From positions 1 through 44,333 of the forward strand of contig JASEGR010000015.1 of assembly GCA_030017955.1 (NCBI GenBank): a DNA stretch of 44,333 nucleotides, written 5' to 3'. The notes under the pieces are model-generated. The model saw only the letters and a program-made list of their open reading frames with translations, was not told the DNA's origin and ran no database searches. How positions within the stretch are numbered: position 1 is the stretch's first letter; each line of letters opens with the position of its first letter. Shown here piece after piece: positions 8,399-38,651 of this stretch. The DNA comes from Candidatus Eisenbacteria bacterium (GTDB lineage: Bacteria > Eisenbacteria > RBG-16-71-46 > JASEGR01). Position numbers and translations under genes: made by a program.

Positions 8399-9865
8399 CT
8401 AATCGACCCTCTCAATAAACGCGTCCCTAAGAAGCTTGCTCTGACGGTTGAATGCCTGCCTCGGGTTCTTAGGGTCCTTCATAAGAGCAATCTCCTGAGT
8501 GATAAGCCGGGCAAGATTCAACGTGTGCGTGTCGGCTCTCGCGGCTTCTCTCCTGTAAAGCGGATGGTCACGGTTTATGTATATAGTCGTCTCCTCTGAG
8601 AAGACCTCAGCGCTATCTTCCCCATAACTGTCAACTACACATGAGACGCCCGTTTCGCCGAATTTCATTCTCTTGATGATTGCATTAGGCGTGAGTGCCT
8701 TTACTTTCGGACGTTTCTTTCTTTTCTTTGGGGGTTCAGGACGCTTTTCTTCGGACTTCACCTCCTCATCCGCTCCTTCGCGCTTCTTGGCGACCGGAGC
8801 AGCATGCCCAATGCCCCCTTCCCCACCGCCTACGGGAAGAGCTCCAAACGGTGAAAGGTCAGGATTCGCGGCAAGTGCCCTGTAGATTCTTTGCAGGGCT
8901 TCCTTGAGCGCATGGCTAACCCTTCTTCCTTCCTTCTTGGCAGTCAGCCTCTGAAGATATTCCCTCACATTTTCCATTACTCGTTCCATCACCTCAAGAA
9001 AGCTCTTGTACTCGCCTGAGTCTTTTAGGAACCCGGTCCTGTCGCTGGTTATGGGAAGGAAGTCGGCATTAACCTCTCCTCTCACCCTTGCCATCACCTT
9101 CCCCCATGTTTCCATTCCAAGGAGCTCTCTTCGAATCGTCACCTGTTTCACCTTTATCTCGATGCCTGGCTGTGTCTCAGCAGACGCAGTCTCGGCCAGG
9201 ACTATTATCTCTCCCGTTATGGGCCCGAAAGCTGTTCCCTCAAGAAGAGGAATTCTGTGTCCCGAAAGGCTCCTTGGAGTTACAGTATGGGCGTTTATTC
9301 TCACCCGGAAGTGAGGGGCCTTGATTGGTGTTCCTTCTATTATCTTTGCCTCTATGTCCGCTGGCTCAAATTCCTTTTCCAACGCGGACAAGATGACGGT
9401 CGTACCGTTTTCTCTTCTGAAGTGAGGAGGAAGTATCTCAAGCGGAAGCTTCCATTCATCTACTTCCTTTTCCCACCGATCCTTGTCGAAAACGACTCTT
9501 GCTACAAAGTCCTCTTTCCTGGTAATGACTTCAAACCTCTTGCAGGCCCCAAGACTCGCGAACTTGCCGATGCCGAACTGCCCTATCCTGTCTCTCCGGT
9601 ACACGGGAGATTTTGGAGAATAGAGCTTCTGCTGAGAGCCGATGTTGAAATACTGCTTGAGCCCTTCTCTGTCCATGCCGCTTCCATTGTCGCTTATCTC
9701 TATTGAGTTCTCCGAGACCAGGACACTGACCAGAGTGGCATCAGCATCATAAGCGTTGTTGACGAGTTCCCTCACAAACTCGATGCTCTCAGCATAGAGT
9801 CTCTCTCCTAGGGTCGTTATGTGGCTCTTGTCGATTGTTACCTGAATGAATTCCGGGGATTCCAT
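8399..9865 (-). CDS. GHKL (Hsp90/MutL/MORC-like) ATPase
   Basis: This 488-residue protein has an N-terminal Bergerat ATP-binding fold. The N-box RELVNNAYDADA carries Glu33 and Asn37, DNGSGM sits at 59-64, GQFGIGKFAS at 95-104, and an NGTTVIL motif follows near residue 150. A second S5-like region may follow, then a low-complexity Lys/Glu/Pro linker (about 355-390) rich in KKRKKRPK, and a small C-terminal domain. The layout is closer to MutL/MORC-type ATPases than to histidine kinases, since no dimerisation His box is seen. The frame opens at 9892, but ATG 9865 has AGGAG nine bases upstream, so I chose it. It shares an operon with the membrane protein after it. Confidence 0.75.
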   Translation of the reverse strand: MESPEFIQVTIDKSHITTLGERLYAESIEFVRELVNNAYDADATLVSVLVSENSIEISDNGSGMDREGLKQYFNIGSQQKLYSPKSPVYRRDRIGQFGIGKFASLGACKRFEVITRKEDFVARVVFDKDRWEKEVDEWKLPLEILPPHFRRENGTTVILSALEKEFEPADIEAKIIEGTPIKAPHFRVRINAHTVTPRSLSGHRIPLLEGTAFGPITGEIIVLAETASAETQPGIEIKVKQVTIRRELLGMETWGKVMARVRGEVNADFLPITSDRTGFLKDSGEYKSFLEVMERVMENVREYLQRLTAKKEGRRVSHALKEALQRIYRALAANPDLSPFGALPVGGGEGGIGHAAPVAKKREGADEEVKSEEKRPEPPKKRKKRPKVKALTPNAIIKRMKFGETGVSCVVDSYGEDSAEVFSEETTIYINRDHPLYRREAARADTHTLNLARLITQEIALMKDPKNPRQAFNRQSKLLRDAFIERVD

Positions 9866-9903
9866 GAATACTCGTCTCCTGTCAGTCTTCACACCGGCCC
9901 TGA

Positions 9904-10146: not shown

Positions 10147-10246
10147 CTGTATCAAACATCCCTGTTTTGGTAGAATCGCCGCGCATTCTCATACGTTTGT
10201 CGTTGGGCGGGCAGGTCGCAAAGATGTGAGCAAAGGCGGTCCTCAC

Positions 10247-10501
10247 ATGGGGAAAAAACGTAAGGATGGATATTCGTCCCTAAGGGAAGCAGGACTCTTA
10301 TCGACAATTCCGTTTCTCCTTGCCGGTGGGCCGGTAATTGGTTTTTTCGTTGGGAGTTTTCTCGACAAGAGACTGGGGACTTCACCTTACCTCTCCATAG
10401 TCTTTGTCGTGCTGGGATTTGTTGCAGGAATAAGAGAAGTCTACAAGGTAATAAGTCTGGCGATGAGAGAGGAAAGGAAAAGAGAGGAAGAAAGGAAATA
10501 G
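10247..10501 (+). CDS. atpZ: AtpZ/AtpI-like ATP synthase accessory membrane protein
   Basis: This 84-residue protein has two transmembrane hairpins of the ATPase_gene1 type: GLLSTIPFLLAGGPVIGFFVG, then a short DKRLGTSPY loop and a second helix, with a highly charged C-terminal tail (REERKREEERK). Such proteins open many ATP synthase operons and are linked to Mg2+ supply or ring assembly. An upstream in-frame GTG at 10226 exists, but ATG 10247 has AGGCGG eight bases ahead and gives the usual length. The next gene follows after four bases. Confidence 0.8.
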   Translation: MGKKRKDGYSSLREAGLLSTIPFLLAGGPVIGFFVGSFLDKRLGTSPYLSIVFVVLGFVAGIREVYKVISLAMREERKREEERK

Positions 10502-10505
10502 GCTA

Positions 10506-11924
10506 TTGGGTCTCGAATTCTACCTAAGAGGAAGAAATCTAACACTTTTTCTCTCCATCCTGGCTTCACTGTTTGGCGCAACCTACCATTCGCCCTCGGC
10601 CGCTCTTGGATTTCTCGCCGGCACTCTGTGGAGCATTCTTAATTTCGAGCTGATTCGCTCCCTTGTCTCATTTCTGAGCGAGCGCCATTTGGCCGTTGTT
10701 CCTGAACCTTTTGGCGGCGCGAAATCCGGCGTGTCTGGTTGGGGTCCGATTCCGAGCGTCCTCGCTCTTTTCCGCACTGTCTGGCGCAATACCGGAAAAA
10801 AGCTTCAGAGAATGCTTGAAGGTCATCGTCGAATCAAGCTTGTCGTTATCGTCGCAATCAAGTTTCCGGTTCTCTACGGCTTGGGCTGGGTTCTCCTGGC
10901 ATCGGACCGTCTCCCAATCTACTTCCTTCTTGCGGGCTACACGCTTCCGTTTGCTGTGATCTTCCTGAAAGCGGTCGGAAGCGCGCTCACGTCAAGCTCA
11001 TCTCGTCCAACCCCCTCACCCTGCCCTCTCCCCAAAGGGGAGAGGAATGAGGAGAATACTCCTGCGGGTGCCCCGAAAAAGCTCCTCTTTCTCGTTCCGT
11101 TCGTTGTTCCCTTCTTTCTCTACGCCCTTCCATCTTTGACTTTTTCTTCCGAAGCAAAGAAAGAAGGCGGAGCACCCGAGCTTCCCAATATCATCATCCT
11201 TCTTGCGGAAGGAATAGGAAATGTCGGCTGGGCAGAGTTCCTGGAAAGATACCAGAACATCTTTTTCTCCTGGCTCATTATCATCGGGCTCAGCATTCTC
11301 GGCTATCTTGCATCAAGAAGGCCCGCGATGGTGCCCGGGAAATTTCAGAACGGCGTCGAACTCGTCGTCGAACAGATTGAGAATCTCATCGTCGGAATCC
11401 TTGGCGAGAGAGGAAGAGAATTGGTTCCGTTCCTGGGCACTCTGTTCATCTATATTTTCTCCATGAACCTCTTCGGCCTGATCCCCGGGATGAAATCTCC
11501 TTCGTCGAGCCTGAGCACGACGGCAGCCCTCGGCATAACAGTCTTTTTCTATGTTCAGTACAGTGGAATAAGGAATCTTGGCTTCCTCGGATATTTTCAC
11601 CACCTTGCAGGAAGTCCGCGTGACGTGATTGGCTGGGCAATGGTCCCGATAATGCTTCCGGTCCATATCCTCGGAGAGCTCATAAAGCCGGTGAGTCTCT
11701 CTTGCCGTCTCTTTGGAAACATTTTTGGTGAGGATGTCTTGATAGCAGTTTTTGTAGGGCTTGGTGTTACTATCCTGAGCTTTCTTCATCTTCCCGTCGG
11801 AATTCCTCTCCAGCTTCCATTCATTTTTCTTGCTTTGTTGACCAGTGCAGTCCAGGCACTGATTTTTACTCTTCTTAGCACAATTTATTTCTTGCTGATG
11901 TTTCCTCACGAGGAGAGTCATTGA
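10506..11924 (+). CDS. atpB: Fused ATP synthase subunit I and subunit a (AtpI-AtpB)
   Basis: This single 472-codon frame starts at TTG 10506. Residues 1 to about 160 look like the four-helix AtpI (subunit I) protein: hydrophobic segments near 10-50 with LAGTLWSILNF, then 110-155. Residues about 163-182 are the translation of a palindromic repeat (SRPTPSPCPLPKGERN). From about 188 a new leader-like hydrophobic segment (KKLLFLVPFVVPFFLYALP) begins subunit a, with the essential stator Arg401 in LSCRLFGNIFGEDVL and the final helices ending MFPHEESH. No in-frame ATG, GTG or TTG lies between about 10990 and 11220, so subunit a appears unable to start by itself. Subunit a forms the proton half-channels against the c-ring. 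Whether a fused chain is made or later cleaved is not visible. Confidence 0.85.
   Translation: MGLEFYLRGRNLTLFLSILASLFGATYHSPSAALGFLAGTLWSILNFELIRSLVSFLSERHLAVVPEPFGGAKSGVSGWGPIPSVLALFRTVWRNTGKKLQRMLEGHRRIKLVVIVAIKFPVLYGLGWVLLASDRLPIYFLLAGYTLPFAVIFLKAVGSALTSSSSRPTPSPCPLPKGERNEENTPAGAPKKLLFLVPFVVPFFLYALPSLTFSSEAKKEGGAPELPNIIILLAEGIGNVGWAEFLERYQNIFFSWLIIIGLSILGYLASRRPAMVPGKFQNGVELVVEQIENLIVGILGERGRELVPFLGTLFIYIFSMNLFGLIPGMKSPSSSLSTTAALGITVFFYVQYSGIRNLGFLGYFHHLAGSPRDVIGWAMVPIMLPVHILGELIKPVSLSCRLFGNIFGEDVLIAVFVGLGVTILSFLHLPVGIPLQLPFIFLALLTSAVQALIFTLLSTIYFLLMFPHEESH
11012..11049. repeat. Palindromic repeat (CCCCTCACCCT family) inside the atpI-atpB frame
   Basis: The core is CCTCTCCCC (11025-11033), AAA, then GGGGAGAGG (11037-11045), a perfect nine-base hairpin, preceded by CCCCTCACCCTG. 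The same unit recurs near 12287, 13395-13480 and 38517-38651. Here it lies at the join between the AtpI-like and subunit-a parts and contributes about 13-20 in-frame codons. Confidence 0.8.
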
Positions 11925-11939
11925 GAGGAGGTGAAACAG

Positions 11940-12170
11940 GTGAGTCTTCAGATAGCGCTAGGTTTTGCTTTGCCTGTCTCGCTTGCGATTGCAGCGTTGG
12001 GCTCCGGGCTGGGTCTTGGAAAGATGGGTTCGTCCGCGATGGAAGCCATGGGACGGCAGCCTGAGGCGGCAGGAAAGATTCAGATTGCGATGATCATTGG
12101 ATTTGGATTCATCGAGGCTCTTACGATCTACGCATTCGTGACCATGTTCTTCCTCTCGGGAAAAATCTAG
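11940..12170 (+). CDS. atpE: ATP synthase subunit c
   Basis: This 76-residue proteolipid forms the rotor ring. Two helices flank the polar loop RQPE (39-42), and the ion-binding carboxylate is Glu59 in GFGFIEALTIYAF. The Na+-ring signature (Gln in helix 1 and a Ser/Thr after the Glu) is absent, since Ala follows the Glu, so protons are the likely ion. The frame opens at GTG 11931, but GTG 11940 is preceded at ideal spacing by AGGAGGTGA, a perfect anti-16S match that includes the earlier GTG, which decides the start. This unusually strong site suits the many c copies needed per enzyme. Confidence 0.93.
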   Translation: MSLQIALGFALPVSLAIAALGSGLGLGKMGSSAMEAMGRQPEAAGKIQIAMIIGFGFIEALTIYAFVTMFFLSGKI

Positions 12171-12286
12171 AAAAGAATCCGGGATCGGGAGTCCGATTGT
12201 GCCTCTTGAGTGCGGCCCTGACAAAGTCGGCCGCGCTTCTGAGCACCTCGGGATGAAGAATTTCTGGATTAGCCCTTATCCTTGTT

Positions 12287-12309
12287 CCTCTCCCCTTTAG
12301 GGGGAGAGG
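12287..12309. repeat. Palindromic repeat between atpE and atpF
   Basis: CCTCTCCCC and GGGGAGAGG pair around TTTAG, a perfect nine-base stem of the same family as at 11025. Its flanks are more diverged than in other copies. It lies in the 187-base atpE-atpF gap, the longest gap within the operon, where a stable mRNA hairpin could protect the atpE message. No gene is seen in the gap. Confidence 0.75.
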
Positions 12310-12357
12310 AGAGGGCGTGGGACACCTGGATGAGATTGGACTTGTGCAGGAGCCGAA

Positions 12358-12846
12358 ATGGGATTAATTGACTTGAGTCAGGTCGTAACACAGATTATCG
12401 GATTTCTCCTGGCGCTCTATCTTCTCAAGCGGCTTGCCTGGAAGCCTCTTCTTCACATTCTTGACGAAAGAAGGGGAAAGATTACGGGCGAGTTTGAAGA
12501 AATTGAGAAACTGAAGGGTGAGATAAAGGCGATCGAGCTGAAGCTGACGACTGCGCTCAAGGGGATTGAGGCACTCGAAAGAGCAAAGATCCAGGAAGCA
12601 ATCTCGGAAGGACAAAAGATTGCACGGGAGATCAGAGAATCTGCCAGGGACGAAGCGAAAGAAGTCATCGAAAAAGCAAAGATGGAAATCGGCAGGGAGA
12701 GAGCAAAAGCAAGGATTGAGCTTAGAGATGAGATTGTTGATGCCGTTGTCCGGGCAACCGAACGCATCATAAAGCAGACTCTCACCGAGGAAAATCAGAA
12801 GAAACTCATATCGGATTTCATAGAAGGGCTTGAAACACTCAAATGA
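12358..12846 (+). CDS. atpF: ATP synthase subunit b
   Basis: This 162-residue stator subunit has an N-terminal membrane helix (about 8-27, VVTQIIGFLLALYLLKRLAW) followed by a long charged helix predicted as coiled coil, rich in Lys/Glu/Arg with ERAKIQEAISEGQKIAREI. It dimerises and connects subunit a to delta and F1. The length matches the usual 156-170 residues. ATG 12358 has CAGGAG upstream. Its stop overlaps the atpH start by four bases (ATGA), which indicates translational coupling. Only one b gene is present, so a homodimer is expected. Confidence 0.93.
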   Translation: MGLIDLSQVVTQIIGFLLALYLLKRLAWKPLLHILDERRGKITGEFEEIEKLKGEIKAIELKLTTALKGIEALERAKIQEAISEGQKIAREIRESARDEAKEVIEKAKMEIGRERAKARIELRDEIVDAVVRATERIIKQTLTEENQKKLISDFIEGLETLK

Positions 12847-13391: not shown

Positions 13392-13542
13392 TGCCCCCTC
13401 ACCTCGATCCTCTCCCCGGTGGGGAGAGGTTGGTAAGGGGCTCTCCCCTCTCCCCATTGGGGAGAGGGGAGGGTGAGGGGCTGATTGATTGCATACATGC
13501 GATTGCTACATAGCTTTCCCGATTGAATTACGGGTTCATTAG
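13379..13542. repeat. Palindromic insert flanked by a 13-bp direct repeat at the atpH 3' end
   Basis: ACGGGTTCATTAG occurs at 13379-13391, where it includes the atpH stop, and again at 13530-13542. Between them lie two hairpins of the palindromic family, CCTCTCCCC/GGGGAGAGG at 13409-13429 and CCCCTCTCCCC/GGGGAGAGGGG at 13445-13469, bounded by CCCCTCACC near 13396 and GGGTGAGGGG at 13471-13480, then about 50 unassigned bases. This is what target-site duplication after an insertion would look like. Confidence 0.7.
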
Positions 13543-38516: not shown

Positions 38517-38651
38517 CCCCTCACCCTACCCTCTCCCCAAAGGGAGAGGAGGAATGCCGGCCATCACCCTACCCTCTCCCCCCAGGGGAGAGGAGGAATA
38601 CCGGCCCCTCACCCTTACCTCTCCCCCAGGGGAGAGGTAAGTAAGGGTGAC
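38517..38651. repeat. Tandem array of palindromic repeats (three units)
   Basis: Three units of the CCCCTCACCCT family lie at about 38517-38549, 38562-38593 and 38606-38651, roughly 44 bases apart, with the first two followed by AGGAAT(G/A)CCGGCC. The third is nearly a full palindrome: CCTTACCTCTCCCC and GGGGAGAGGTAAG with outer TCACCC/GGGTGA. The other copies are near 11012, 12287 and 13395. It fills the gap before the S9 peptidase. Confidence 0.8.

What the first reader, a model, noticed from the sequence alone, without database searches (positions are those of the whole stretch)
10506..11924. ATP synthase subunits I and a fused in one frame through a palindromic repeat
One 472-codon frame holds an AtpI-like domain, then about 20 codons that translate a palindromic repeat found elsewhere in the window, then a full subunit a with its own leader-like hydrophobic start. 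No in-frame ATG/GTG/TTG lies between about 10990 and 11220. AtpI and AtpB are normally separate neighbouring genes; a repeat insertion that removed the stop/start is the simplest explanation. If translated as one chain, the ATP synthase would carry its assembly factor covalently on the stator.
Basis: partly seen in the sequence, partly recalled or inferred. Interest (0 to 1): 0.75.

Follow-up and report, generated by a model that had tools for sequence, protein, structure and literature searches.

The report
ATP-synthase helper AtpI fused to subunit a
In this uncultured bacterium (Candidatus Eisenbacteria) the gene for the ATP-synthase assembly helper AtpI runs straight on into the gene for the proton-channel subunit a, and the same kind of joined gene occurs in several separate lineages of its relatives, so it is a real, recurrent gene fusion rather than a one-off accident, although whether the two halves stay joined in the cell is not known.

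Summary
One open frame (TTG 10506 to stop 11924, 472 aa, 51.7 kDa) carries an AtpI-type four-helix domain, a linker that translates a palindromic repeat, a signal-peptide-like helix, and a complete subunit a with its stator arginine (R401). The window belongs to Candidatus Eisenbacteria. Among held genomes of that phylum, AtpI and AtpB share one stop-free frame in 28 of 39 testable genomes (families f1, f3, f7, f8) and are separate in 11 (f4, f6, f9, f10, f11). A second phylum has three more fused cases; no other was seen in the parts of broader surveys that I checked. The fused state is not one clade (AU p = 0.002 for f1+f3+f8), so it arose, or was undone, at least five times in all. The repeat is private to this genome (127 copies; practically absent from 45 other class members), so it cannot explain the fusions in general; here it sits exactly at the old gene boundary and may have caused this one. 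Best reading: one precursor in which subunit a's former signal peptide is an internal fifth helix, probably cut by signal peptidase; the cut is inferred. I found no earlier description in open-licence papers.

The parts
10506..11924 (+). fused atpI-atpB reading frame, 472 aa, TTG start (MGLEF), stop at 11922-11924
   Evidence: start matches the MGLEFLARVRR start of family f8
10506..10991 (+). AtpI domain, residues 1-162, four predicted helices (3-27, 30-63, 85-132, 138-162), with a private insertion of about 40 aa between membrane helices 2 and 3
11011..11045 (+). palindromic repeat copy read in frame as (T)PSPCPLPKGER, in the predicted cytoplasmic loop between AtpI helix 4 and the next helix; strong RNA hairpin
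   Evidence: -22.8 kcal/mol, z -3.0
11047..11049 (+). ATG with purine-rich leader, out of frame (+1) with AtpB: not a usable start as sequenced
11082..11132 (+). hydrophobic helix (residues 193-209), corresponding to the N-terminal signal peptide of stand-alone subunit a
   Evidence: stand-alone AtpBs of f4, f9, f10 begin with signal peptides
11136..11138 (+). only in-frame start-type codon (TTG) between the AtpI domain and subunit a; no Shine-Dalgarno
11148..11156 (+). candidate signal peptidase I site S-E-A, cut after residue 217 (inferred)
11157..11921 (+). subunit a body with invariant stator arginine R401 (codon 11706-11708), RLFGNIFGED
10226..10501 (+). upstream AtpZ / ATPase_gene1 (PF09527)
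11931..12170 (+). atpE, subunit c (PF00137)
12358..12846 (+). atpF, subunit b (PF00430)

Best explanation
This is a true in-frame fusion of atpI and atpB, made as one precursor. Steps: (1) ribosomes start at TTG 10506 and read through both genes, because no usable start for AtpB exists inside (the sequence is shown, translation itself is not); (2) AtpI inserts as four helices with both ends in the cytoplasm (from prediction and charge pattern); (3) the linker with the repeat peptide stays in the cytoplasm; (4) the former signal peptide of subunit a acts as a fifth helix and carries the chain to the periplasm, giving subunit a its normal N-out topology (inferred); (5) most likely signal peptidase I cuts behind that helix, leaving AtpI plus one helix as assembly factor and a normal subunit a in a fixed 1:1 ratio (inferred). 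This tolerance, from a ready-made signal helix at the joint, would explain why the fusion recurs. In this genome a private palindromic repeat sits at the joint and may have helped to remove the stop and start.
For: 28 of 39 testable phylum genomes have AtpI and AtpB in one stop-free frame. Family f8 keeps a fixed-length in-frame motif across the joint (AW.RL..SPWRA-like) in 16 of 16 genomes; the close pair G002/G020 shows pN 0.038 against pS 0.32 across joint and helix. A start with a Shine-Dalgarno match before the helix exists in 4 of 31 fused genes against 12 of 19 separate ones. AtpI identity. Predicted helices. Separate AtpBs in f4, f9, f10 start with signal peptides. A-x-A followed by Q/E/D behind the helix in 15 of 31 fused genes, 5.7 expected from shuffles. 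Only 16 specific single edits out of about 1,480 would split this frame cleanly.
Against: This genome alone represents its family, and its nearest relatives (f6) have separate genes, so the fusion here rests on one assembly. The A-x-A pattern was chosen after looking and ignores relatedness; the site here (S-E-A) is weaker than in f3 and f8. The linker and helix are predicted with low confidence (pLDDT 35-41). No protein or RNA data.
Confidence: 0.6

Rival explanations
1. Uncut fusion: the chain stays whole, so every ATP synthase of these organisms carries AtpI tethered to the stator next to the c-ring.
For: Topology allows it; AtpI (UncI) is described as a c-ring assembly factor (PMC4154653), so a tether beside the ring is conceivable; joint conserved as protein in f8.
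Against: Signal-peptide architecture and A-x-A[QED] enrichment behind the helix suggest processing; poorly conserved periplasmic linkers follow the helix.
Confidence: 0.25
2. Sequencing or assembly error at the joint in this genome: with one base missing in the C-run near 11011 and one in the A-run near 11075, AtpI would end and AtpB begin at an ATGA overlap at 11047-11050.
For: Nearest relatives f6 are separate; ATG 11047 has a purine-rich leader and one more base behind it would give a fitting signal peptide.
Against: Needs two independent indels; one indel alone leaves AtpI overrunning AtpB to about 11381. The rest of the atp operon is intact. Many independent assemblies in f3, f7 and f8 show the fusion.
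Confidence: 0.07
3. One frame, two products: subunit a is also or only translated from an internal start (TTG 11136 here, GTG or ATG in others) although the frame is continuous.
For: TTG 11136 is in frame; f7 genomes G007 and G031 have in-frame starts with Shine-Dalgarno matches before the helix; some bacteria make subunit a without a signal peptide (own knowledge; compare L062).
Against: TTG 11136 has no Shine-Dalgarno and would drop the signal helix; most fused genes have no conserved internal start.
Confidence: 0.12
4. The repeat insertion alone explains the fusion in this genome.
For: Repeat sits exactly at the boundary present in f6; repeat family is private to this genome.
Against: f3, f7, f8 and the second phylum are fused without any such repeat, so fusion may have come first and the repeat later into a tolerant linker.
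Confidence: 0.35

Closest known systems
Separate atpI (uncI, PF03899) and atpB (PF00119) genes at the head of bacterial atp operons
   Same: Same two proteins, same order and strand, behind an AtpZ-type gene and ahead of atpE and atpF
   Different: Here both lie in one frame without stop or usable internal start
Yeast mitochondrial Atp6, whose precursor is processed by Atp23 (PMC8877559)
   Same: A subunit a made as a longer precursor and then cut
   Different: There the leader is short and not an assembly factor; here a whole AtpI would precede the cut, and the protease would be signal peptidase I (inferred)
Plant CGL160, distantly related to bacterial Atp1/UncI (PMC9806626)
   Same: AtpI-like factor in c-ring assembly
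   Different: Not fused to subunit a

Membership tests
F-type ATP synthase subunit a | PF00119 domain above cut-off | tested here: met
   178.3 bits, cut-off 33.9; predicted fold matches solved subunits a
F-type ATP synthase subunit a | conserved stator arginine | tested here: met
   R401 invariant in 30 sequences
F-type ATP synthase subunit a | own start codon, chain begins with subunit a | tested here: not met
   no usable in-frame start upstream of the helix
AtpI / UncI (PF03899) | Pfam gathering score | tested here: not met
   16.2 bits against 25.1; four of seven stand-alone AtpIs next to atpB in relatives and other phyla also fall below
AtpI / UncI (PF03899) | profile similarity to stand-alone AtpI upstream of atpB | tested here: met
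   hhalign 99.5 %, E 4e-22
AtpI / UncI (PF03899) | four membrane helices | tested here: met
   four predicted helices, pLDDT mostly 73-96 outside the insertion
AtpI / UncI (PF03899) | c-ring assembly activity | not testable with these tools
   needs biochemistry
Signal-peptidase-I-processed precursor | n-h-c regions with small residues at -3 and -1 | tested here: inconclusive
   KK + hydrophobic stretch + S-E-A here; A-x-A[QED] 15/31 against 5.7 by shuffle, post hoc

The most novel reading that the evidence does not exclude
In several lineages of Eisenbacteria and one family of a second phylum, the c-ring assembly factor AtpI is a permanent covalent part of the ATP-synthase stator: a subunit a with five extra N-terminal helices, which would be a new subunit architecture for an F-type ATP synthase.
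Probability: 0.25. Interest if true: 0.75.

Novelty: new variant of a known kind. Interest (0 to 1): 0.52.

Why it matters
AtpI is among the least studied parts of the ATP synthase operon (PMC4154653). A natural, recurrent fusion to subunit a suggests that the two act at the same place and in a 1:1 ratio, at least during assembly, and gives a direct handle to test it. It also offers a case where a cleavable signal peptide may make neighbouring membrane-protein genes free to fuse, which would be a general route to bacterial polyproteins.

Tried and rejected
Fusion as a private accident of this genome: rejected. Fusion kept from one ancestor in one clade: f1+f3+f8 and f1+f3+f8+f7 rejected by AU tests (p 0.002 and 4e-56); f1+f3 alone p 0.023. 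A single base error: only 16 specific edits would do. Long AtpB frames in other phyla: 18 fetched, none holds AtpI in frame (two of them gave no AtpI hit at all). Plasmid records: matches to subunit a only, none covers most of the query. Literature on an AtpI-AtpB fusion: searches found nothing; PMC4154653 describes duplications and rearrangements of atpI, and the one use of the word fusion there was not among the passages shown.

Full report
What is there. The frame from TTG 10506 to the stop at 11922-11924 is open for 472 codons and follows the AtpZ-type gene (10226-10501) by four bases. Its start MGLEF is the start seen in family f8 of the same phylum (MGLEFLARVRR). Residues 252-462 are subunit a (PF00119, E 2.6e-52), with the stator arginine R401 and the RLFGNIFGED block invariant in 30 relatives and a predicted fold that matches solved subunits a. 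The first 162 residues score only 16 bits with the Pfam AtpI model, below its cut-off. Four of seven stand-alone AtpIs next to atpB also fall below it, and a profile comparison with such AtpIs gives 99.5 % probability and E 4e-22. AlphaFold predicts four helices there and a disordered linker at 166-220.

Where it comes from. Related records bear the name Candidatus Eisenbacteria. The held genomes of the phylum number 47. I built an AtpI profile from the relatives and looked upstream of every AtpB in three frames. AtpI and AtpB share one stop-free frame in 28 genomes: this one (f1), seven of f3, three of f7, seventeen of f8. They are separate in eleven: f4, f6, f9, f10, f11. Genomes with AtpB at a contig edge were not counted. 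All ten fused loci among the 80 named loci are Eisenbacteria; the other seventy, mostly other phyla, showed no fusion. In a survey of 385 genomes, whose weaker matches were not listed, the only other fused cases belong to one family of a second phylum (G058, G087, G088), which the tree puts beside Krumholzibacteriota. In those three the AtpI profile scores are weak (8.6-11.7 bits), so the AtpI label there rests on position, length and hydrophobic pattern.

Is the joint translated? In f8 the stretch between the last AtpI helix and the next helix has a nearly fixed length and an in-frame motif with conserved aromatic residues in 16 of 16 genomes. In the close f3 pair G002 and G020 the joint plus helix has pN 0.038 and pS 0.32. 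Over wider sets the ratio is less sharp, as expected when synonymous sites are saturated. Start codons with a Shine-Dalgarno match before the helix occur in 4 of 31 fused genes and in 12 of 19 separate ones; about a third of the fused genes, this one included, have no ATG, GTG or TTG at all between the AtpI profile match and the helix. Exceptions are f7 genomes G007 and G031, which keep plausible internal starts. For this genome the evidence is by homology and by the lack of a start, since no second genome of its family is held.

One origin or many? A tree of AtpB, AtpA and AtpD puts this genome beside f6, which has separate genes (support 96/93), then f3 (fused); f8 (fused) stands beside f11 (separate), f7 (fused) beside f10 (separate). 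At least five changes of state are needed. Holding f1+f3+f8 together is rejected (p 0.002), adding f7 more so; f1+f3 alone gives p 0.023. The counts cannot tell repeated fusion from repeated splitting.

The repeat. The palindrome has 127 forward copies in this genome and practically none in 45 other class members. Most copies sampled lie outside long reading frames; in this operon others lie between atpE and atpF and between atpH and atpA. The copy in question lies just where f6 has the AtpI tail, its stop and the AtpB start. So it spread after the split from f6, and may have taken part in this one fusion. It cannot explain the others.

How it would work. Stand-alone AtpBs in f4, f9 and f10 begin with signal peptides. 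In fused genes this segment is kept as an internal helix, often preceded by basic residues and followed by A-x-A and then Q, E or D: 15 of 31 against 5.7 by shuffling (the pattern was chosen after inspection and related genomes are not independent). From general knowledge of these proteins, AtpI has both ends in the cytoplasm and subunit a has its N-terminus outside; one extra helix between them is just what a fusion needs. I therefore think that the chain is made as one precursor and probably cut by signal peptidase I. The cut is inferred, and an uncut chain is the main rival.

Limits. One assembly supports the fusion in this species. Two indels at the joint would restore a classic ATGA overlap at 11047-11050; a single indel would rarely give a tidy pair of genes. 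No expression data exist here. I found no earlier report in the open-licence library, which lacks most subscription papers.

Noticed in passing
window 12276-12321, 13409-13480, 38517-38632: Further copies of the palindromic repeat sit between atpE and atpF, between atpH and atpA (two in a row), and as three in a row at 38517; the family has 127 forward copies and is private to this genome within the class.
   Followed up: partly
window 10686-10830: This AtpI has an insertion of about 40 residues with many basic ones between membrane helices 2 and 3 that no aligned relative shows.
   Followed up: no
L046 (G031:C817), L047 (G012:C68), G021:C78: A second, divergent subunit a gene in some Eisenbacteria, only about 31-38 % identical to the main one, perhaps part of a second ATPase.
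   Followed up: no
L012, L020, L032 and f8 loci, N-terminal linker of AtpB: Long stretches rich in histidine, alanine and glutamate ahead of subunit a, on the predicted periplasmic side, with repeats such as EAHEEHGEAHEEH.
   Followed up: no
window 8399-9892 (-): A 497-aa reading frame that looks like a GHKL-type ATPase lies just upstream on the other strand.
   Followed up: no
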